A DNA stretch of 64,000 nucleotides, from the NCBI RefSeq assembly GCF_012070395.1, contig NZ_JAAFYS010000001.1, positions 1,280,001 to 1,344,000 of the forward strand. Direction: 5' to 3'. This stretch comes from Pseudoroseicyclus tamaricis (GTDB lineage Bacteria > Pseudomonadota > Alphaproteobacteria > Rhodobacterales > Rhodobacteraceae). This document shows positions 10,701 through 22,451 of the stretch, piece by piece; positions within the stretch are counted from its first letter, which is position 1; the number at the start of each line of letters is the position of its first letter. The notes beneath the pieces are model-generated. The model saw nothing but the letters and a program-made list of their open reading frames with translations, made no database searches and had not been told where the DNA came from. The translations under genes and the position numbers were made by a program.

Positions 10701-11532
10701 TTTCCCGCTGTCCGCTGGCGAACGAGTGACCGCCGACGCCGAAGGCTAGGGTCAGGCCGCTGCCGACGTCGAAGTCGGCCGAAAGATAGAGATTAAGATC
10801 CGCCCTGTTCGGAATGACGGCCGACGTGCCCGAACCGGCGGGGATGTCGCTGCTGCCGGTCGCCAACGACTGCGCGCGGCCCGAGACGACCGTCCGCGTT
10901 GCGCGCAGCTTGGGATGGCAATCAAAGGCCACGTCGTCGGCCTGCAAAGGTGCCAGCGATACGGTGGTATTGATGTTGCGGTCGCCGAGCGCGCGCCGAG
11001 CGCCACGAGGAAGGAAGGCGATGGAACTAAGGTGTCCCTGCGCCTTCGCCATCGGCATGCAGTGGTCAGGATGCTCAGGGGTGGTCGCGCTCCACACGTA
11101 GCCAAGGTATTCGCAGCCGCTGCAGCCGGTACCCACGTGCCAGTCGAGAGCCTTCCGAGGGCTGGCCAGCGCCTCGGCGAGTTCCACGTTGAAGAAGTGC
11201 CTGAGGCGCGGCGAGAAGACGTCAATTTCGAGCGTCTCGATGTCATCGTTCAGGGCGGCGGCCAGCTCGTCGGCTGTCGGCGTCATCCCCGACTTGCTTC
11301 GCTCCGCCTGGAGCCTGACGATCGCTGCGGCGTCGTGCGATCCCGGCCAGATAGCCGCCTCGGCGACGACGGCATATCGGTCAGCGCTTGCCGCGGCTTG
11401 ACCTCTGATCTGTGGGTGGATCGTTTCGTGGATGCGCTGGCCGATGTCTGTCGTCGACCTTGGAGGATCGGCGGGTGGTTTGACATTGAGAAGGCCACTG
11501 AACTGCTCGATCCAGTCCTCGGGCGAGTTCAC
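7788..11532 (-). pseudogene. Dna2/TM0106-like nuclease-helicase, N-terminally truncated and frameshifted
   Basis: Two overlapping frames form one protein of about 1247 residues once a single A is removed from an A7 run (T7 at 9343-9349 on the + strand). The first part (residues ~1-729) has three cysteines, C137, C140 and C158, in a 'WHVGTGCSGCEYLG' context like the C-terminal Fe-S cysteines of Cas4/Dna2/TM0106 RecB-like nucleases. The second part is a complete SF1 Upf1/Dna2 helicase core: Walker A GPPGTGKS (~775-782), DEAS (~912-915), GDPKQLPP (~939-946), a C-terminal 'ERFQGQQRDV' and a 'MASRPRAKLVV' motif VI. The upstream PD-(D/E)XK nuclease half and the first cluster cysteine are missing; the frame opens with GTG exactly where phage tail sequence begins. 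The family includes DNA repair and phage-defence enzymes. The shift could be mutation, sequencing error or slippage. Confidence 0.75.
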
Positions 11533-14500
11533 CTACGCGACGCAGGCGATCCGCAAGACTGATGGTGGCGCGACAGTGCCCGAGAACATGAACGCGCTGG
11601 CCGCCTCCACCGACATGGTGGAGGCGCTGGACCGGCTGCAGGCGATGGCGCCTGCGATCGAGAGCGTCAGCCTCGTCGTCGCCTGGGTCGGCGACGACCT
11701 GCGCGCGGGGTCCTGCAAGGTGCGGCCGGGCGTCGAGGTCTCGGTTAAGTCGACCTCACCCGCCAGCTGGTCGGTCAATGGTGTCAGCCGCGGCGATGCA
11801 TTCCTCGTCAGCCGCGACGACCAGGACCGCCCGGTCTATGGCGGCACGCCCTCCGACTTCGCCGTGGTACGGGCGATCCAGGAGATGAAGGCGCGCGGGC
11901 TGCGCGTCACCTTCTACCCGTTCATCCTGATGGACGTGCCGCCCGGCAACACGCTGCCGAACCAGTATTCCGACAACGCCGCAGAGACCGGCCAGCCCGC
12001 GTTCCCCTGGCGCGGCCGGATTACCTGTTCGCCTGCAGCGGGGTTCGCCGGAACCGTGGACAAGACCGCCACGGCCGCCGCGCAGGTGGCGGCGCTGTTC
12101 GGGGCGGCGACACCTGCGAACTTCAGTGTCTCGGGCGAGAGCGTCAGCTGGATCGGCACGCCCGGCGACTGGGGCCTGCGGCGCATAGTGCTGCACTACG
12201 CCCATCTCTGCGCGGCAGCAGGCGGGGTCGATGCGTTCCTGATCGGCACCGAAATGCCCGTCCTGACGACCATCCGCTCGGGCGCGTCCACCTATCCGGC
12301 GGTGCAGGCCTATCGGGATCTTCTCGCGGATGTGCGCTCTATCCTCGGGGCCGGGACCAGGATCGGCTATGCCGCAGACTGGTCGGAGTATTTCGGGCAC
12401 CAGCCGGGCGACGGCTCGGACGACGTGTTCTTCCACCTCGATCCGCTCTGGGCCGATCCGGAGATCGATTTCGTCGGGATCGACAACTACATGCAGCTCT
12501 CCGACTGGCGCGACGGGTTCGAGCATGCGGACGCGGCCGAGGGCTGGCGCGCGATCTACGACCGCGCCTATCTGCAAACCAACATCGCGGGCGGCGAAGG
12601 CTTCAACTGGTTCTATGCCAGCGCGGCCGATCGGAGCGCGCAGGTGCGGACCTCGATCACGGATGGCGCGGCGGCCAAGCCGTGGGTCTTTCGCTACAAG
12701 GATTTGCGCGCCTAGTGGTCGAACGCGCACTACAACCGCCCGGGCGGGGTGGAGAGCGGCACGCCGACGGCGTGGGCGCCGCAATCCAAGCCGATCTGGT
12801 TCACCGAGCTCGGCTGTCCCGCCATCGACCGCGGCACCAACCAGCCGAACGTCTTCTTCGACCCGAAGTCGTCCGAGAGCTTCACGCCGCATTTCTCGCG
12901 GGGCTGGCGGGACGACGCTATTCAGCGCGCCTATGTCGAAGCGACCTACCTCTTCTGGGGCGAGGCCGCGAACAACCCGGTGTCCTCGGTCTACGGCGGC
13001 CGCATGGTGCATGTGCCCGAATGAGCCGCCTGGACCTGGGACGCGCGGCCGTACCCATTCTTTCCGGCGCTGACCGCCGTCTGGACCGATGGCCCCAACT
13101 GGCGGCTCGGCCACTGGCTGACCGGATGGCTCGGGTCAGTGTCTCTAGCCGCGCTCGTCCGGCACCTCTGTCTGCGCGCCGGGCTGCCGGAGGATCGGAT
13201 CGACGTCACCGGCCTCTGGGGCGCGGTCGAGGGCTATGCCATCACGGCGCTGGAAAGCCCGCGCACCTCGATCACCACGCTGGCGCGGCATTTCGGGTGC
13301 GACGCCGTCGAGACCGACGGCGTGATCCGTTTCGTCATGCTTGCGCGAGCGGCGGTGGCGAGCATCGCGCCTGACGATCTGGTGGCCCCTCGCGAGGGCG
13401 ACGTGCTGGAACTTACGCTGGGCCAGGAGACGGAACTGCCGCAGCCGCTGAAGTGGCAAGTCGCCCGAGCGGACGAGGACTACGACGCCGCCCTCGTCGA
13501 GGACCGACGCATCACGGTGGACACGACGCGGATCGCGTCCGAGAGCTTTCCGATGGCGGTGCCGCCAGAGGAAGCCGAGCGGCGCTGCCGCCGTGCCCTG
13601 ATGGAGGCGTAGGTGGGTCGCGAGGCGGCGGCATTCCGTCTGCCGCCCTCGCGGCTCGCGCTCGATCCGGCCGACGCGATCCGGCTGGAGCAAGATGGGC
13701 GGCTGGTCGATCTGCGGCTCGTCTCCATCGCCGACGCGGAGGCGCGCGGCATGGAGGCGGTGCGCCAGGACCGAGCGACTTCCGATCTGCCGCCCGGCGA
13801 TCCCCGCGCCGCCTCGCTGACACTCGCCGTTGTCTTCGGCGCGCCGGAAGCGGTGCTGATGGACCTGCCGCAACTGACCGAGGACCAGCCCGCGCATCGG
13901 CCGCTGGCCGCCGCGCACGCGGTTCCTTGGCCGGGCGAGATGGCGGTGTTCCGCAGTCCCTCGACCGATGGCTTCGAGCTGCTGACCACGTTCGGCAGTC
14001 GCGCCCGGCTCGGAGTTCTGGTCTCGGACTTCTACGCGGGCCCCACGTCGCGCTCTCGGCAATGCGCTGGTGGTCGATCTGCTGACCGGCACGCTGGAGA
14101 GCGTCGAGGACCTGACCCTATTCGGCGGAGCGAACGCCCTGGCCATCGAGAGCGCGCCCGGCGTCTGGGAGATCGTCCAGGCGGGCGCGGCTGAGCTGCT
14201 GGCGCCCGGCCGCTATAGACTGACGCGGCTTCTGCGCGGCCAACGCGGCACGGAAGGCGCGATGGGTAACCCTGGGCCGGTTGGCGCCCGCGTCGTGGTG
14301 CTCGACGACAGCCTCGCCACGCTGCCAATCGCCGAGGCCGATCTCGGCATCCCCTGGAACTGGCGCATCGGCCCGGCGAGCTGTTCGGTCAGCGACGAGA
14401 CCTATGTCGCGCAGCCGTGCCGCACGCCGCGTACGCCCGGCGATCTGACGATCCGCTGGACGCGTCGGTCCCGCGCGCTCGCGGCCGACAGCTGGAGGCG

Positions 14501-14736
14501 GGCTTGAGGTGCCGCTGGCCGAGGAACTGGAAGCCTACGAGGTCGAGATCCTCGACGGCGCCACCGTGAAGCGGGTGCTGAGCACCGCCACCACCAGCGC
14601 GGTCTACACCGCCGCGCAACAGACCGCCGACTGGGGCGCACCGCTCGGTCCCGGCGACACGCTCGACATCCGCATCTTCCAGCTCTCCGCCCTCGTCGGG
14701 CGGGGCACGCCCAAGACCGTCACGCTACTATTCTGA
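11519..14736 (+). pseudogene. GTA/phage baseplate 'megatron' (gp15-like) tail protein, decayed fragment
   Basis: Joined across lesions this reads as the C-terminal two thirds of a GTA-type multidomain tail hub. It begins mid-protein at 'GEFTYATQAIRK' and continues through 'AVSLVVAWVGDDLR'-like sequence into a TIM-barrel-like region ('VTFYPFILMD', 'GTEMPVLTTIR', 'FVGIDNYMQLSDWRDG', 'IWFTELGCPAIDRG') and a phage-tail_3-like part ('WAWDARPYP'-type motif). Lesions: TAG at 12713, TGA at 13022 and TAG at 13610, all in frame; a frameshift near 14045-14065; and two single-G losses near 14502-14515. The 5' part is absent: the helicase fragment abuts directly. Family: RcGTA rcc01698-like (GTA_TIM). It cannot make a full product and is a relic of a prophage or second GTA-like cluster. 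Confidence 0.85.
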
Positions 14737-14746
14737 AGGCCATCCC

Positions 14747-16657
14747 ATGTCCGACGCCACGACTCATCTGCTGCTGCCCTACATCCTGGCGGCGCAGGCC
14801 CAGAAGCATGTCACCCACAACGAGGCGCTGCGGATCCTCGATGGGCTCATCCAGCTTTCCGTGCTCGACCGCGATCTGACAGCGCCGCCCAGCAGCCCCA
14901 CCGATGGCGATCGCTACATCGTCGGCTCGGGCGCGACGGGCGATTGGGCCGGCTGGGATCTGAACGTCGCGCTCTGGACGGACGGCGCCTGGCTGCGTCT
15001 GCCGCCCCGGACCGGCTGGCGGGCGTGGGTCGAGGACGAGGAACTGCTGCACGTCTGGACCGGCACTGCCTGTGAGGTCGTAGGCGAGCCGAGCGACATC
15101 TCGGATGCCGTCTTCAGCCTGATCAACGAGGCCGACGCCACAAAGAAGGCGGTCTTCTCGCTCTCCGGTATCAGCGCCGGCACGACCCGCAGTTACACGC
15201 TGCCGAACACCTCGTAGGAAATGGCGATCCTGGCGGGAACCCAGACCTTCACCGGCAACAAAACCTTCTCGGGCACGCTCACGGCCTCCGGCACCGTGAC
15301 GGTCTCGGGCGCGTCCGCAACCATCGGCACGGCGACCTACGGCATGGGCATAGGGGCGACGACCACCGGCCTCACCAAGACCGTGAACCTTGGCACCGGC
15401 GGTGCGTCGGGGTCGAACACGGTCGTCAACATCGGCCCGGCAACTCCGGCGCGAACGGCACGACGGTGGTCAACACGCCGACCGTCACCTTCGCCAATGC
15501 CGTCACGCAGGTCGGCATGCCACAGGCGAACCTCACCTCGCAGCTTCTGGGCCTCGGCGGCGGGACGGCCGACAGCTACAACCGGCTCTCGGTCGACACG
15601 CCCGCGGTGCTCCTGAACAACGCCGGCGCCGGGATCGAGGCGACGGTGAACAAGGCCGCAGCCGGGAACGACGCTGCCTTCGCCTTCAAGACCGGCTTTT
15701 CGGCCCGGGCGCTGATGGGACTTCTCAGCAGCGACGATTTCAGCTTCAAGGTCAGCCCGGACGGTTTGGCCTTCGATGGGGCGATCCGCATCGACTGCAG
15801 CAGCGGCCGGGTCGAGATGCCCGAGCCCGTCGTGCTTCCGGCGATGAGCGCCGTTCCCGCGCCGCCGCCGACCGGCAAGATCGTCCTCTATGCCCGCGAC
15901 CGCGCCGGGGGGGGGGGGCTCGACGTTCAGCGCCCCTCGGGACGGTTCTTCCCGCTGCAGCCGCTTTTCGGGATGAACCGGATCGCGACCTGGGCGCCGT
16001 CCTCGGGCACGACCGTCAACACCAACGGCATGCCGCGCACCGCCGTCGGCACGGTCGCGACGCCGACACTCGCCACCAACAACCTTTCGACCTCAATGCG
16101 CCGCTGGCGCGTTACCCGCGCCGCCACCGCCGACGCGGCGGCCGAGGAACGCTCGGCCGGCTGGGTCTGCTGGCACGGCAATGACGATGGGCTGGGCGGC
16201 TTCACCTATGTGAACCGACTTTCGCTCGTGACCTTGCAGGCGATCGGCATGGGGTTCTTCGGCCTCTACGGATCGACGGCGGCGCTGGCCACGACCCTGA
16301 CGTTGTCGGCCATGGTGAACTGCATCGGCATCGGCTTCCAGCGCGGCACCCACGAACTGGCAGTTGGTGCAGAACGATGCCTCGGGTGCACCGACACTCG
16401 CCGATCTCGGGGCGAGTTTTCCGGTGGCGAGCACGACGAACGTTCTGACCCTCACGCTTCTCGCCGCTCCGAACAGCAGCGAGATCGGCGTCCGGGTGGT
16501 CGAGAAGGTCAGCGGGGCGGTGGTCGAGGCCTTGCTCGACACCGACATTCCCGCAGCTGCGCAACTCCTGAGCCCGCGCAACTACATGAACAACGGCGCC
16601 ACGGCGGCGGCGGTCGCCTACGATTGCTCAGCCGTCTATGTGGAGACGGATTACTAG
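14747..16657 (+). pseudogene. DUF2793 phage tail/fibre protein, decayed
   Basis: It starts MSDATTHLLLPYILAAQAQK followed by 'HVTHNEALRILDGLIQLSVLDRDL', the hallmark of DUF2793 proteins that follow megatron in GTA and phage tail clusters; GAAGG precedes the ATG. The body has low-complexity T/G/S-rich fibre sequence ('GTQTFTGNKTFSGTLTASGTVTVSG'-type). It is broken by an in-frame TAG at 15215, a one-G loss at about 15436 and a probable two-base loss at about 16350; the last part ends '...SAVYVETDY' at 16657. A G10 run sits at 15907-15916 but keeps frame. Same decay state as the megatron fragment 11 bp upstream, so one inactivated tail module. Confidence 0.82.
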
Positions 16658-16972: not shown

Positions 16973-19795
16973 ATGCCAGTAGTACTTGATTCTGGAATAC
17001 TTGACGCGCATCCAGTGCGTAACGTGGCGCTCTCACAGATTCAAAGTGCGTGCGCACATCAAGCCGGCATACAAGTCGCGACTTTTCGATCAAACTCCGT
17101 GGAAATCATTCGGGATTACTTAGATCATCTTGGCCTCAGAGTTCCATGTGAAACCACAGACTATACGGAATTTCTTGAGCTTTTCAGTTCCGATATCGAG
17201 AAGTGGAAGGAGTTTTCTGAAAACATCTTCGTGAAAGTCGCGCTGCAAAGCCCATCTTTTCCTCACCTTCTCTTTCGTCTGATGATGAATCACTATGCAG
17301 CAAGAGCACACTATGCGATAGCACTACTTTACCTTTTCTCGGACAAGGACAAGACGCGCACCTGGCGAATTCTGGGTGCAAACTTTCCATTGATGCTGCG
17401 GGCCGCCGCCGACAAGGAGCTCATATATGTGTTTGGACCTACACTTGTAGACCTGGGTAATCGAGAAGCGGAAAGATTGGCGTCCCTTCAGAGTGTTGTT
17501 GTTTACGAAGTTCAGCGACTGGCCGATGCAACATCTCAACTGCGAGGCAAGTATAGTGGACTGCTTTGCACAACTGAAGAGATAATTAGAAATGCTTTTG
17601 CAAGGCCAAAGATATCGCAATCTCAGTTGGAAAGTGAATGCTTGATTGGCTCTTGCGTGCTGAAGAGCGCGAGGATGAACGAGGTCTCAAAGCAATACGA
17701 GTCAGTGCCGCCAACTTTTTATAGCAAGCTTGCAGCCTCATTGTATCTTGTTTGCACCGAAAAGCGGAACGCTTGCTTCGCCTTCCGATCCTTCTCAGGG
17801 GTGAGCGATATTCGCAAGAGAGTTGTAAGCGTCCAGGCGAATACTCTGGAAATTTCGGTATCCGAGCATGGGCCAGGTGCTCTTCCGGTTGAGGATACGG
17901 CACGCGCCAGAGCGCTTTCTGGATTTACAAATTGGTCCGTCTTCATCGCCGAGTCAATTAACATGTTAATAAACTGGCTCCAGTATCACGCAAGCGCAGA
18001 CCCGGACGGTGAGGGTGGGGTTGACTTCGGTCGACGGCTTGCGAGGTACTTGGCCTATCCATTCAATGCAGATGAATGTAATATCTACCGGAGCGCCCCC
18101 AAGCATGGTGCGATTTCTTTGGAGGCCTATGCGCAATATTCTCGAAGCGCAATACCCCCAGGCCGATCTCGACTGATTGCTGAGGAAGTAGTTCGAATCT
18201 CGAAAGGTCCGTTCCCAAAGCGGTCAATCGTTGCGCGCGCCAGCTTTCTTAATGCAGAACAGTATTGCGTACTGTTTGAGCAAGCAAGTGGTGCGGCAAT
18301 CCCGGAAGATCAGGTTTTATGTTTTCCAAATGGACATGAGGATTCAGATTGGGGGAGGTCTGCTTGCGCGATACCTATTCGTTTTTCCGGCTTAAGTTGG
18401 GGTGTCATTGAATTTGTGAGTGTGATGCCTCATGCCTTTCGAGAGACCGTCCGATCGAAAATCGAGGGAGTGATAAGCGTCTTTGCGCCACATGTTTTGC
18501 AACGAGAGATTTTTGGCGGCGTTCGAGAACTGAGCAGAACAATGATGAGCACCCGGACGATTGGTGATAGGAAGGGTGACCTTGCCGCTGTTTTTCAGAA
18601 CCTGCTTTGCGCCAGATCGCTGTCGATCTTCTCTTTCAAGAAGGGCGAAAGGCCCGAACTATTCGTTCAGAGGGGTTGGTCTGATATCGAGAATATTCTG
18701 GACGCCAAAGTCAACGCCGAGCGCACGCTTTCGGCAATAATAGCACAGTTCGCTGATGAAGGTGTCGACTTTCGGTGGCTCAACGATGCTCTCGGACCCG
18801 AGCCACGCCTTTCCGCCCTTCGTGGGCGCAACCCGGAGCGAGTGCTACTTGCAAGGGTTCTTTGGAGAATAGCTGAGGGTTTAGGACATGCCGCGATTGC
18901 ATTAATCGAGTTTCAACATCGACCGGTTCAGGCGGAAAATTGGCAATCCTTGGTAAAGTTCGTGTGTCAAGCTACTGGGAATACCATCGGAGGTATCTAT
19001 AGCAAAGAAACATGGGATATTGAGTTACGCTTACGTTCTGCGCATGAGTTGAAGAAGTCGGCGAAGGGTCTGGCTTCCTCCAACGAAAAGTTGAGCAAAC
19101 TTATCGAGAGGCTTGAACGAGGTCCTGACCAAAGAACCTTGCAAAAAGTTCGCACGGTGATGACCGATTATCGAAGATACTCGGCGAGCGTTGACAGGAT
19201 GACCTATGCATTGGAAAACACCGCGTATGATCCATCGACAATCGAACCGCGTTTCGGCCTTGCGGGGTCCGCAGTTGATAGGTGGGTTGCGACAGGAAGA
19301 TCTTCGATCGATATCAGAGATGTAATAAATCACGCCTTCTACGGGGCTAGCGAAGCTTTCACAGATAGAAACATACTTCTTCCTGAGTTCGTCAGTCTTC
19401 CCAAGTTAGAGGCGTATGTCGAAGAATGGTGTCTGCAAGAGGTTCTATTGTCACTGTCACAGAATGCTCAGAAGTACGCTGCGCCGAATACTGCGATATT
19501 GATTTCAGAAAAGTCTACCAACAACCTCGGCTTAAGGATCTCGAACATCGGTCCGCGGCTCGACGAAGACGAAGAGCATCGAGTCTTCAACGACCAAGCT
19601 CGAGGCAGACGAGTCGTCGCGCTTGGTATCGAGGGCTCCGGCTACGGGTTGCATTATGCGCAAGAGATGGCTCGGAAGTACATGGGTTGTGACCTCGATC
19701 ACTTCCAAACCGAGCTAGATAAGGGCCGCGACGCCGAGCTAACGTGGCATCACTTCACGCTTGTGTTGCCGCGACGACTCGTTAAGAAATTATGA
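16973..19795 (+). CDS. Soluble GAF/HATPase sensor-kinase-like protein of RES-linked cassette
   Basis: A 940-residue protein without signal peptide or convincing membrane segments. Residues 1-400 match nothing I recognise. A GAF-like fold is suggested at ~415-510 ('SACAIPIRFSGLSWGVIEFVSV') and a second at ~530-675 ('ARVLWRIAEGLGHAAIALIEF'). A possible phospho-acceptor helix has H691 in 'SAHELKKSAKGL'. The C-terminus is a GHKL ATPase: N box 'EVLLSLSQNAQKYA' (N831), G1-like 'RISNIGP' (857-861) and G2 'GSGYGL' (888-893). It is followed 18 bp later by a receiver-antitoxin gene and then a RES toxin, so I infer it is the kinase of a cytoplasmic signalling pathway that controls the toxin. The N-terminal region may be the sensor. 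Base composition is lower in G+C than the host genes. Confidence 0.8.
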   Translation: MPVVLDSGILDAHPVRNVALSQIQSACAHQAGIQVATFRSNSVEIIRDYLDHLGLRVPCETTDYTEFLELFSSDIEKWKEFSENIFVKVALQSPSFPHLLFRLMMNHYAARAHYAIALLYLFSDKDKTRTWRILGANFPLMLRAAADKELIYVFGPTLVDLGNREAERLASLQSVVVYEVQRLADATSQLRGKYSGLLCTTEEIIRNAFARPKISQSQLESECLIGSCVLKSARMNEVSKQYESVPPTFYSKLAASLYLVCTEKRNACFAFRSFSGVSDIRKRVVSVQANTLEISVSEHGPGALPVEDTARARALSGFTNWSVFIAESINMLINWLQYHASADPDGEGGVDFGRRLARYLAYPFNADECNIYRSAPKHGAISLEAYAQYSRSAIPPGRSRLIAEEVVRISKGPFPKRSIVARASFLNAEQYCVLFEQASGAAIPEDQVLCFPNGHEDSDWGRSACAIPIRFSGLSWGVIEFVSVMPHAFRETVRSKIEGVISVFAPHVLQREIFGGVRELSRTMMSTRTIGDRKGDLAAVFQNLLCARSLSIFSFKKGERPELFVQRGWSDIENILDAKVNAERTLSAIIAQFADEGVDFRWLNDALGPEPRLSALRGRNPERVLLARVLWRIAEGLGHAAIALIEFQHRPVQAENWQSLVKFVCQATGNTIGGIYSKETWDIELRLRSAHELKKSAKGLASSNEKLSKLIERLERGPDQRTLQKVRTVMTDYRRYSASVDRMTYALENTAYDPSTIEPRFGLAGSAVDRWVATGRSSIDIRDVINHAFYGASEAFTDRNILLPEFVSLPKLEAYVEEWCLQEVLLSLSQNAQKYAAPNTAILISEKSTNNLGLRISNIGPRLDEDEEHRVFNDQARGRRVVALGIEGSGYGLHYAQEMARKYMGCDLDHFQTELDKGRDAELTWHHFTLVLPRRLVKKL

Positions 19796-19813: not shown

Positions 19814-20610
19814 ATGCTTCAGAGCGTTCATTCGACTGACCAGCAGAAGTTATGTCGGATCCTTGTGTTTGATGACAACGAAACCTTCGATTATCTTAAT
19901 GACTTCACAGCTTACGGCTGCACGTTTGCGAAGTGCGCTAGCTTCGCGGAACTTGACCGCGAGCTGTCGAGGGACGGCGGAAGCTCAGATGAGTATGTGC
20001 TCGGTGTCTTCGATGTTTTCTGCGATATTGCGGAGGACTTCGGTTTCCTTGGCAGGGATGACATCAAGCTTGAACCGGCCCGCTGCGGTCCGCAACTGGT
20101 TGGAGAAGTCTTACCAAGCTTGGGTTTTGATTTCAGACAGAAGCCCTTGATACTGTTCTCTAGCCATGAGGGAGTCGGCGGGACCGCTGAGGTCCGCAAT
20201 GATGAAAATCGGCCTGTTTCAATGCCAGTGATTTCGAGAGAGAAGATTGCAGAGCAGATCGCTCGGAAGATGGCGGAAATTGGCGTGGGATTTGGGGGGC
20301 AGGCGACATTGGCGGTATTGATGGTGATGTTTTTTCACCATCTGAGTACAAAGATATTTATTTAAGCTTGGCGGCCAGACTCCAACTTACTGACGACGAA
20401 GTTCGCCGATTTTTGGGAATTATTAACAAGGATGTTTCTGTAGATCAGGTATTTCGTTCAGTTACTCTCGCAAATGAGAAGATTGATCTACTGGTTGAGG
20501 TTGTAGCTCATATGGATATATTTCTGCGAGAGGATGAATTTAGAGATTTCCTGGAAACAAGATGTCGTTCGCTTCCAGGCGGTTTACCTCTTGAGTACCT
20601 GCTAGGGTGA
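19814..20610 (+). pseudogene. Receiver domain fused to Xre/MbcA/ParS-type antitoxin domain (frameshift at G6)
   Basis: Two frames join into one 265-residue protein if one G is added to the G6 run at about 20294-20299. Residues 1-~160 look like a divergent response-regulator receiver: 'CRILVFDDNETF' (D20, D21), 'YVLGVFDVFC' with candidate phospho-acceptor D67, and 'PLILFSSHEG' (S116/S117). After the junction the other frame reads 'SPSEYKDIYLSLAARLQLTDDEVRRFLGI' (helix-turn-helix-like) and 'KIDLLVEVVAHMDIF', ending 'FLETRCRSLPGGLPLEYLLG', the pattern of the MbcA/ParS/Xre toxin-binding domain (DUF2384: W-L-x-x-P-N-x-x-L-G-G-x-x-P-L-E-L-L). A RES toxin follows. As written the 183-residue product lacks the antitoxin domain, unless a TTG at 20368 starts it separately. 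Mutation, sequencing error or programmed frameshift are all open. The gene lies 18 bp after the kinase. Confidence 0.72.
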
Positions 20611-20675
20611 ACTGCCGATCTGGTTAACCTCAGGGCGGAATTGGAGTCCATTAACGGCGGGGCATTGCTCTAGTC

Positions 20676-21239
20676 ATGATGGACGATTATTGCTGCATTA
20701 TTAGTAATAAGCCTAAAGCAAGATGCGTCGCTTCCGATGTATTTTACACGGACCGAGGCGCTCAGAGTTTTGCTGATCAAATTCCTTCATCGATTCCGAA
20801 AGAAAAGCTGGATGAGTATCTTCGTCGGAGGCGGCGCAGCTACGCGAACAGTGATAGAGATAGAATTATTCGTAATGTGAGCTGGGGGTTCGACAAAGTT
20901 GCCTTGGGGCAGACTGTAGGGGAAGGCCGATTCAATTCGAAACATGAGGCGGCGCTATATACAGCAAGAGATGCTCAGACCGCAATGAAAGAGCGGCTCC
21001 ACTACGTCAAGGAAGGGAGCAAGCCGTTTGACTACGTTGTATTTGCAATTTTTGCGTCAGCTAAGATGGTCGATATTCGGAAGGGTAGTGGCAACAGTTT
21101 ATGCCTGGTGGTTGCCGACAACCATCAAGAATGTCAGCGATTTGCGTCAGATGTACGAGAAAAGTATGCGATGTCGACCGGCATAATTCCCGACTCTGTG
21201 CGAGATCCGGGTGGAGCATGTTGCACGTTTTTTACTTAG
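20676..21239 (+). CDS. RES domain toxin (predicted NAD+-degrading)
   Basis: A 187-residue protein with the RES family signature in order: 'GEGRFNSKHEAALYTARDAQTAMKERL' gives the conserved Arg (R85), Tyr (Y95) and Glu (E106), and the C-terminal 'IIPDSVRDPGGACCTFF' gives the conserved Ser (S174). Characterised RES toxins (for example MbcT of M. tuberculosis and the Pseudomonas RES-Xre pair) consume NAD+ and are neutralised by an Xre/MbcA-type antitoxin. Here the antitoxin-like domain sits at the C-terminus of the receiver protein 65 bp upstream. The gene is intact. The start is MM at 20676; the ribosome-binding site is weak, which may keep toxin levels low. Base composition matches the kinase gene, so the three genes probably moved together. 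Confidence 0.85.
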   Translation: MMDDYCCIISNKPKARCVASDVFYTDRGAQSFADQIPSSIPKEKLDEYLRRRRRSYANSDRDRIIRNVSWGFDKVALGQTVGEGRFNSKHEAALYTARDAQTAMKERLHYVKEGSKPFDYVVFAIFASAKMVDIRKGSGNSLCLVVADNHQECQRFASDVREKYAMSTGIIPDSVRDPGGACCTFFT

Positions 21240-21420
21240 TCGGCGTTGCTCCTGATTGCGTCATCTCCGTTGGTGTTGAGACTTAATTGCGCCAGTTTGA
21301 CGATGTTTGAAACATGGAGAAGGTTGGGCGTCAGGCCCATCACCTCCCCCACCCACCATTTATGTTGATTGGCGCTCGGTGCTGTTCATTCCGTGGTATG
21401 AAACCAGGTATAGGCATGGC

Positions 21421-21546
21421 CTAGGCTCAGGACCCATTGATCAAGACGGCGGTGCGTGATTCAGCCTTCGCCAGAAGGAGGCTGACGATGAGCGAACTTT
21501 ACTGGCTGAGCGACGCGCAGATAGATCGGCTGCGGCCTACTTTCCT
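21421..21546 (+). mobile_element. Partial IS5-family element, 5' end only
   Basis: About 126 bp identical in plan to the start of the neighbouring full-length element but in opposite orientation. It has the terminal repeat CTAGGCTCAGGACCCATT (21421-21438), then the transposase N-terminus (MSELYWLSDAQIDRLRPTF from 21488) and stops abruptly where the next element begins. It cannot encode a transposase. With the next element it forms an inverted arrangement with the same 18-bp terminal sequence at both outer ends. Confidence 0.75.
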
Positions 21547-22375
21547 CGGCTCAGGACTCATAGCCAATAGATTGCGGTCGCGGCGAGTGCGATGGCCGAG
21601 AGGAAGGCCTTGGGGCATCGGTCGTAGCGAGTGACGACACGACGCCAATCCTTGATGCGGCCAAACATGATCTTGATACGATGGTGCCTGCGGTATCTTC
21701 GCTTGTCGTATCTAATCGGCTCCCTGCGCGACTTTCGCGACGGAATGCAGGCCCGAACCTTGCTTTCCGACAGAGAGTTATAGAACCAGTCGGCGTCGTA
21801 GCCGCGGTCGGCGAAAAGCCAGTCCGGTTGCGGAAAGCCGCTCTGGAGCGCGAGCGCGCGCTTGTAGTCGCTGACCTGGCCGGCGGTCACGAAAAGGCGG
21901 ACAGGACGGCCCTCGCGGTCGGTGACGGCATGGAGCTTGGTGTTCATGCCGCCCTTGTTCCTGCCGATCAGGCGGCCACGTACCCCTTTCGAGCTTGCAG
22001 GCTCGAGGCCGTGCGGTGCGCCTCCAGATAGGTCGCGTCGATCATGATCGTCCGGCAATCGGTCTACTCGGCGGCGAGCCCATGATCCGGGCGAACACGT
22101 CCGTGCGGCTCCATCTGATCCAGTTATTGTAGAGCGTCTTGTGCGGACCGTATTCGCGGGGGCGTCCCGCCATCGCAAGCCATTGAGATTGATGAAGATA
22201 ATGCCGCTGAGGACGCGCTTGCCGTCCACACGGGGTCGCCCATGGGGTTAGGAAAGTAGGCCGCAGCCGCTCCATCTGTGCGTCGCTCAGCCAGTAAAGA
22301 TCGCTCATCGTCAGCCTCCTTCTGGCGAAGGCTGAATCACGCATCGCCGTCTTGATCAATGGGTCCTGAGCCTAG
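21545..22375 (-). mobile_element. Full-length but degenerate IS5-family (IS427-like) element
   Basis: An ~830-bp element bounded by imperfect terminal repeats: CTCGGCTCAGGACTCAT at its left (21545-21561), and ATGGGTCCTGAGCCTAG (22359-22375), the reverse complement of CTAGGCTCAGGACCCAT, at its right. It contains one transposase gene on the minus strand, broken by frameshifts. Size, ends and transposase type fit the IS427 group of the IS5 family. No clear target duplication can be named because the left end abuts a second partial copy. Confidence 0.8.
21558..22305 (-). pseudogene. IS5-family (DDE) transposase, frameshifted
   Basis: Pieces of one IS5-type transposase appear in two frames. One has 'MSDLYWLSDAQMERLRPTF' from 22305 and later 'EYGPHKTLYNNWIRWS'. 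The other has 'DGKRVLSGIIFINLNGLRWRDAP' and the C-terminal half 'NKGGMNTKLHAVTDREGRPVRLF', then 'LFADRGYDADWF' (with the DDE Asp region) and 'KIMFGRIKDWRRVVTRYDR' (with the Glu region), ending 'AIALAATAIYWL'. Several small indels separate the frames in the N-terminal half, so no functional protein is expected. Confidence 0.82.
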
Positions 22376-22451
22376 GGCCGGCTAGCGAGAGCGAGGCACA
22401 CAAGGCACGAGCGACTGCGTTGCGCCACCCACCCGCCGCCGCCGCCCCCCT

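What the first reader, a model, noticed from the sequence alone, without database searches (positions are those of the whole stretch)
16973..19795. Unrecognised ~400-residue N-terminal sensor region on a soluble kinase
The first 400 residues show no family I can name, yet the frame is intact and hydrophilic, with scattered charged helices ('ETTDYTEFLELFSSDIEKWKEF' region). With two GAF-like domains after it, the protein could bind a small internal ligand. The candidate H-box 'SAHELKKSAKGL' is a clear departure from the classical S-H-E-x-R-x-P-L, and the G1 box is 'SNIGP' rather than D-x-G-x-G, so it may be a new kinase subfamily or a non-phosphorylating ATPase.
Basis: inference. Interest (0 to 1): 0.55.

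Follow-up and report, generated by a model that had tools for sequence, protein, structure and literature searches.

The report
Kinase-linked antitoxin and NAD-destroying toxin
The odd sensor kinase is the first gene of a three-gene mobile block in which a phosphate-receiving domain appears to be fused to an antitoxin that holds back an NAD-destroying toxin, so a signal sensed by the kinase may decide when the cell poisons itself; the copy here looks partly broken, but a whole copy sits on a marine Salipiger plasmid.

Summary
In detail: 16973-19795 is an intact, soluble 940-residue kinase-like protein whose first ~330 residues match no family searched. It does not stand alone. It heads a low-GC block (50% against 68% on either side) with a receiver-like gene and a RES-domain toxin gene. 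A Salipiger profundus plasmid (NZ_CP014803.1) carries the same three genes in the same order: kinase (30% identical over its whole length), a 287-residue gene-2 protein, and RES. Gene 2 is a divergent receiver domain joined to a domain resembling the Xre/ParS antitoxins of RES toxins (weaker evidence). H691, E692, N831, N858 and the GxG box are identical in all three kinases found; N858 replaces the usual Asp. RES keeps its R-E-S triad. In this window gene 2 has a frameshift and a stop and RES ends early, so the system is probably inactive here. Best reading: a two-component-gated toxin-antitoxin system, perhaps in phage defence. The architecture rests on homology; phosphotransfer, toxin release and defence are inferred. 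The N-terminal ligand stays unknown; the kinase structure model failed.

The parts
16973..19795 (+). Soluble sensor histidine-kinase-like protein, 940 aa, first gene of the block
   Evidence: full-length relative in Salipiger profundus, 30.4%
16973..17962 (+). N-terminal region, residues 1-330, no known family; 26.9% identical (87 of 324) to the Salipiger protein; not alignable to the distant relative P0009 (E 0.16)
17990..18547 (+). First GAF-like domain, residues about 340-525 (38.2% identical to Salipiger)
   Evidence: Pfam GAF E 0.19 here, 4.8e-4 in P0002, 1.5e-4 in P0009
18548..18997 (+).
19043..19045 (+). H691 of the H-box (SAHELKKSAKGL); H and the following E invariant in 3 of 3 kinases of this kind
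19433..19738 (+). HATPase_c catalytic domain with N831, SNIG (Asn for Asp) and GSGYGL
19814..20365 (+). Gene 2, first part: divergent receiver (REC) domain; ILVFDD, the Asp of GVFDVF and LFSS kept; the usual REC lysine not found
   Evidence: tblastn of Salipiger gene 2 at 19859-20251; hhalign to 14 response regulators of the same genome E 4.2e-4, probability 34.5, 0 of 300 shuffles as good
20344..20670 (+). Gene 2, second part in another frame: Xre/ParS-like antitoxin domain, cut by an in-frame stop at 20608-20610
   Evidence: NCBIfam NF049845 E 0.0022, profile 7-110 of 112 with the stop read as X
20676..21239 (+). RES-domain toxin, 187 aa, R85-E106-S174 triad present; ends about 21 residues before the Salipiger protein
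   Evidence: Pfam PF08808 E 1.6e-13

Best explanation
A three-gene, horizontally acquired, two-component-gated toxin-antitoxin system. Gene 1 is a cytosolic sensor histidine kinase with a private N-terminal sensor and at least one GAF-like domain. Gene 2 fuses a divergent receiver domain to a domain related to the antitoxins of RES toxins (Xre/MbcA/ParS type). Gene 3 is a RES toxin that, like its studied relatives, should destroy NAD+. In the resting state gene 2 would bind and silence the toxin; when the N-terminal region senses an internal signal (phage infection or another stress), the kinase changes the phosphorylation of the receiver, the antitoxin lets go or occludes less, NAD+ falls and growth stops. 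Shown: gene order conserved in two genomes, domain identities by homology (the antitoxin part is the weakest), conserved catalytic residues, low-GC block. Inferred: phosphotransfer, direction of the switch, toxin binding, NAD+ loss, role in defence. In this window the module is probably inactive because gene 2 is broken and RES is shortened.
For: Same three genes in the same order in Salipiger profundus pTPRO7, 1 base between genes 1 and 2, 4-base overlap of genes 2 and 3. Kinase motifs conserved in 3 of 3. Receiver: hhalign E 4.2e-4, 0 of 300 column shuffles as good. Antitoxin: window piece hits Xre_ParS_antitoxin E 0.025-0.029, and E 0.0022 over 7-110 of 112 when read across the stop; 4 RES-linked antitoxins score 18.4-27.1 bits against 18.1 bits here. 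RES: PF08808 E 1.6e-13 and 4e-15; R-E-S invariant in 10 of 10. A distant kinase, collinear over 578 columns (hhalign probability 98.5), also precedes a receiver-like gene. The RES toxin NatT degrades NAD+ (PMC11535050, passages).
Against: Only two genomes with all three genes were found. The Salipiger gene-2 C-terminal half does not itself hit the antitoxin model; profile comparison of both copies with 8 RES-linked antitoxins is weak (probability 2.8, 3 of 300 shuffles as good), and with the whole Salipiger protein weaker still (probability 1.6 over 26 columns). All antitoxin scores, the real ones included, lie far under the model's cut-off of 90 bits. The receiver match has a probability of only 34.5 and no Pfam hit, the usual receiver lysine was not found in gene 2, and the distant receiver-like gene matches response regulators only weakly (E 0.0083, probability 4.8). 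A model of the gene-2 C-terminal half (pLDDT 55.5) had no PDB match with E <= 0.001 and no RES antitoxin among its 35 matches. On defence: PADLOC gave only kinase-end matches to one candidate family; NatT, a RES toxin, showed no phage phenotype (PMC11535050, passage); another RES system, GndRX, is described as lacking canonical function (PMC12457610, passage). I did not search the neighbours for defence genes.
Confidence: 0.6

Rival explanations
1. The kinase works on transcription: gene 2 is a response regulator whose output is an Xre-type DNA-binding domain, and the RES gene is simply one of its targets, as RES antitoxins also repress their own operon (recalled).
For: RES antitoxins are Xre-family proteins with a helix-turn-helix plus a toxin-binding part (PMC12457610, PMC2701414, passages); the NF049845 match covers nearly the whole model (7-110 of 112).
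Against: Both copies have a gap where 6 of the 8 aligned antitoxins read WK, in the part that would be the helix-turn-helix (by eye).
Confidence: 0.2
2. A variant of Detocs, the phage-defence system with a histidine kinase (DtcA), a receiver that buffers phosphate (DtcB) and a response regulator-effector (DtcC), with a RES effector in place of the nucleosidase (the effector's nature is recalled).
For: Three genes with kinase, receiver and an enzyme that would drain a nucleotide cofactor; description of DtcA/B/C read in PMC11728103 (passages).
Against: Here the effector carries no recognised receiver and the receiver carries an antitoxin-like domain; no DtcA sequence was at hand, so kinship was not tested.
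Confidence: 0.12
3. Chance neighbours: an orphan kinase-receiver pair beside remnants of an ordinary RES-Xre pair.
For: 8 of 8 other RES loci whose surroundings I looked at have only a small antitoxin-type gene directly before RES and no kinase in the stretch shown; 27 further plasmid hits were not looked at.
Against: Same order and packing in a second genome at about 30-37% identity, and receiver and antitoxin-like parts lie in one intact frame there.
Confidence: 0.06
4. One reading: a non-phosphorylating ATPase that senses a small internal ligand.
For: G1 box has Asn for the usual Asp; the H-box departs from the classical one.
Against: His, Glu, N-box and GxG conserved in 3 of 3; a receiver-like gene follows in 3 of 3 loci.
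Confidence: 0.05

Closest known systems
RES/Xre (MbcTA, ParST, NatRT) type II toxin-antitoxin systems
   Same: RES toxin with R-E-S triad; antitoxin-like domain encoded directly upstream
   Different: The antitoxin-like domain is fused to a receiver domain and preceded by a histidine kinase
Detocs (DtcA/DtcB/DtcC)
   Same: Histidine kinase plus receiver plus a presumed cofactor-draining effector
   Different: Effector is RES without a recognised receiver; receiver joined to an antitoxin-like domain; no separate buffer gene seen
Classical histidine kinase - response regulator pair
   Same: H-box, HATPase_c, receiver gene in the same operon
   Different: SNIG instead of D-x-G-x-G, AHELxKS instead of HExRxPL, output domain antitoxin-like
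cREC domains near NAD+/ADP-ribose enzymes
   Same: Divergent receiver beside an NAD+-using enzyme
   Different: cREC is reported never to occur with a histidine kinase (PMC9503650, PMC7824862, passages); here a kinase is present

Membership tests
Histidine kinase (two-component) | HATPase_c domain with N and G boxes | tested here: met
   PF02518 E 6e-7, 30.3 against cut-off 26.4 bits; N831, GSGYGL; G1 has Asn for Asp
Histidine kinase (two-component) | Phospho-accepting His followed by an acid | tested here: met
   H691-E692 invariant in 3 of 3; no HisKA-type Pfam hit
Histidine kinase (two-component) | Autophosphorylation | not testable with these tools
   needs protein
Receiver domain | Acid pair, phospho-acceptor Asp, Thr/Ser, Lys | tested here: inconclusive
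   DD, D and S conserved in both copies; Lys not found in gene 2; no Pfam hit; hhalign E 4.2e-4, probability 34.5, 0 of 300 shuffles
RES/Xre toxin-antitoxin system | RES domain with R, E, S | tested here: met
RES/Xre toxin-antitoxin system | Xre/MbcA/ParS antitoxin upstream | tested here: inconclusive
   E 0.0022, 18.1 bits, below the 90-bit cut-off that 4 of 4 scanned RES-linked antitoxins also miss; Salipiger half no hit; hhalign 3 of 300 shuffles as good
RES/Xre toxin-antitoxin system | Toxicity and neutralisation | not testable with these tools
   needs experiment
Detocs | Effector gene that carries a receiver domain (DtcC) with a nucleosidase (recalled) | tested here: not met
   Pfam finds only RES in gene 3 of both copies apart from one sub-threshold hit
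Detocs | Kinase kin to DtcA | not tested
   no DtcA sequence at hand

The most novel reading that the evidence does not exclude
A new kind of immune or stress switch: a phosphorelay directly gates a toxin-antitoxin pair. The kinase's unknown N-terminal region senses infection and, through a receiver welded onto the antitoxin, unleashes an NAD+-destroying RES toxin. It would give a RES toxin a defined input, with interchangeable sensors on a shared kinase core (the distant relative keeps core and receiver but has a different N-terminus).
Probability: 0.35. Interest if true: 0.75.

Novelty: new variant of a known kind. Interest (0 to 1): 0.58.

Why it matters
What triggers RES toxins is an open question: PMC11535050 (passages read) says no RES toxin-antitoxin system has been implicated in immunity and that the role of the family is unresolved. 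A kinase and receiver wired to the antitoxin would make the input testable by phosphotransfer and phage assays. None of the nine paper searches (open-licence PubMed Central only, listings of at most 20 papers) listed a title or abstract on a kinase/receiver-antitoxin/RES arrangement; I read passages of nine papers, not whole texts.

Tried and rejected
Kinase structure: predicted with a two-row alignment, mean pLDDT 30.8, unusable, so no fold search was made with it. Gene-2 C-terminal half folded alone, pLDDT 55.5; the PDB search gave 35 matches with E <= 10, none with E <= 0.001, no RES antitoxin among them.

More relatives: none in genome contigs, viral contigs or phages. With the kinase, 12 of 101 genomes (E <= 0.001) and 6 of 385 (E <= 1e-6) matched, the own genome included; apart from it the listed matches cover only the C-terminal region (residues 663-927). 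With the N-terminal profile, 1 of 394 family genomes (own) and 4 of 398 phylum genomes (own, the useful G1051, and G980 and G1276; the G980 match lies in a frame that looks like UvrB by recall; G1276 was not examined). The one genome held for the genus is the own. P0009 in 5 genomes of its family: only itself. The RES profile in 292 genomes of the order: own plus two; one of these two shows a ParS-like frame beside it, read by eye; for the other I listed only frames of 150 residues or more, too long to show an antitoxin. Gene-2 profile in 385 class genomes: own plus one short match in an 877-residue frame, not followed. Samples overlap, so these numbers do not add up. The distant kinase and its receiver-like gene found nothing among the plasmids, nor did the window block as DNA.

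Considered and dropped: a common N-terminal sensor shared with the distant kinase (E 0.16); a programmed frameshift in gene 2 (an in-frame stop is present as well, and the neighbouring GTA-type gene has three in-frame stops and a change of frame, so decay is likelier). Promoter and terminator scans gave about as many sites as shuffles. A first receiver alignment with minus-strand loci in the wrong orientation was replaced.

Full report
The finding itself. The frame 16973-19795 codes for 940 residues. Pfam recognises HATPase_c at 821-920 (E 6e-7) and, far below threshold, GAF at 365-491 (E 0.19). No family in Pfam, NCBIfam, PADLOC, PHROGs or the PDB sequences touched residues 1-330 at the limits used. 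The protein has no membrane span by hydropathy: the maximum 19-residue mean is 1.38.

A true relative. tblastn of 72,556 plasmid records found two matches: KdpD of Comamonas, over residues 686-906 only, and a full-length relative on Salipiger profundus plasmid pTPRO7 (30.4%, E 9e-124). By region the identity is 26.9% for 1-330, 38.2% for 340-525, 21.6% for 526-675 and 39.9% for 761-940. H691, E692, N831, K834, Y835, SNIG at 857-860 and GSGxGL are identical in the two. Its N-terminus does not align (E 0.16). Of 28 HATPase_c matches in the window's genome only this one has Asn in the G1 box; by eye, 25 of the other 27 read D-x-G. A similar Asn occurs in 1 of 13 other aligned kinase hits (L014), so Asn alone does not mean a dead enzyme.

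The neighbours. Gene 2 begins 18 bases after the kinase, and a RES toxin gene follows. In Salipiger the same order is kept: kinase 12001-14892, hypothetical 14894-15757, RES 15754-16386 of L023. The window block has 50% GC (genes 48-50%) against 68% in 6 kb on either side, and a third-position GC of 0.51 for the kinase against 0.91 for the two genes sampled; the Salipiger genes have 47-50% in flanks of 61-63%. Both copies therefore look acquired as a unit.

Gene 2. The intact Salipiger protein has 287 residues and no significant Pfam hit (best ENT, E 0.046). Its first 160 residues and those of the window copy share an acid pair, an Asp at the phospho-acceptor place and a Ser pair, and compare with 14 response regulators of the window's genome at E 4.2e-4, probability 34.5; 0 of 300 column shuffles and not the reversed profile reach that score. 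The usual lysine was not found. The receiver-like gene behind the distant kinase aligns to gene 2 at E 1.7e-5, probability 78, but to the response regulators only at E 0.0083, probability 4.8; that contig ends 289 bases after the gene, and I recognised no RES frame there by eye. The second half of gene 2 is 36% identical between the copies. The window half hits the NCBIfam antitoxin of RES/Xre systems at E 0.025-0.029. Read across the stop as X, the match extends to 7-110 of 112 positions at E 0.0022 and 18.1 bits; four antitoxins that sit before RES toxins on plasmids score 18.4, 22.5, 24.2 and 27.1 bits in the same call (4 of the 8 I had were scanned). Results against: the Salipiger half alone has no hit, profile-to-profile probability is only 2.8 with 3 of 300 shuffles as good, likewise 3 of 300 with a trimmed version, the whole Salipiger protein gives probability 1.6 over 26 columns, all antitoxins miss the curated cut-off of 90 bits, and a single-sequence model (pLDDT 55.5) matched no RES antitoxin in the PDB.

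RES. PF08808 matches at E 1.6e-13 (window) and 4e-15 (Salipiger). In an alignment with 8 plasmid RES toxins, R85, E106 and S174 are invariant in 10 of 10; R-E-S is named as the putative catalytic triad in PMC12457610 (passage). The RES toxin NatT degrades NAD+ (PMC11535050, passages); that paper argues against a role of NatT in phage defence, and PMC12457610 describes a RES system, GndRX, without canonical function. Eight of the 35 other plasmid RES hits (limit E 1) were inspected: all 8 have a small gene directly upstream, annotated as an MbcA/ParS/Xre or Xre-like antitoxin in 7 and as hypothetical in one, which hits the antitoxin model (22.5 bits); none has a kinase in the stretch shown (flanks 1.5 to 6 kb).

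State of this copy. Salipiger gene 2 maps to 19859-20251 in one frame and to 20344-20670 in another, with a stop at 20608-20610 inside the second piece; the RES frame ends about 21 residues before the Salipiger one. The adjoining GTA-type gene (GTA_TIM, Phage-tail_3, Rcc01698_C; 11432-14507) has three in-frame stops, at 12713, 13022 and 13610, and its last domain lies in another frame. This points to local decay; sequencing error is not excluded. The kinase frame itself is whole. I take the module to be inactive here.

Mechanism. Best supported: sensor kinase, receiver-antitoxin, RES toxin, that is, a two-component-gated toxin-antitoxin system. Architecture and homology are shown to the degree given above; phosphotransfer, direction of the switch, toxin binding and any role against phages are inferred. 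In NatR-NatT the antitoxin's C-terminal helix extends into the toxin's active-site groove (PMC11535050, passage), which suggests how a phosphorylated receiver could move an antitoxin; this is analogy.

Literature. Nine searches of the open-licence library listed no title or abstract on such an arrangement. Passages were read in PMC12457610, PMC13092281 (a figure legend that names HATPase and REC among predicted defence domains), PMC7159879, PMC2701414, PMC11728103, PMC9503650, PMC11535050, PMC12189002 and PMC7824862. The nucleosidase nature of the Detocs effector is recalled.

Verdict. The interest lies less in the unknown N-terminus than in what the kinase is wired to.

Noticed in passing
window 21420-22376: IS5-like element (DUF4096 and DDE transposase parts in two frames, minus strand) just after the RES gene, with 127-base inverted arms 21420-21546 and 22250-22376, 96% complementary; longer than usual terminal repeats, perhaps an inverted fragment of a second copy.
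   Followed up: partly
window 11432-14507: Gene of the gene-transfer-agent type (GTA_TIM, Phage-tail_3, Rcc01698_C domains) with three in-frame stops and a change of frame: probably decaying.
   Followed up: partly
   Followed up: partly
L032 5336-7074: Salipiger profundus pTPRO5 carries an ordinary ParS-RES pair and a ParD-ParE pair side by side, so the strain has both ordinary and kinase-linked RES loci.
   Followed up: no
L014 1501-1773: A kinase of another genome with SNWGPG in the G1 box: the Asn-for-Asp variant is not confined to this family.
   Followed up: no
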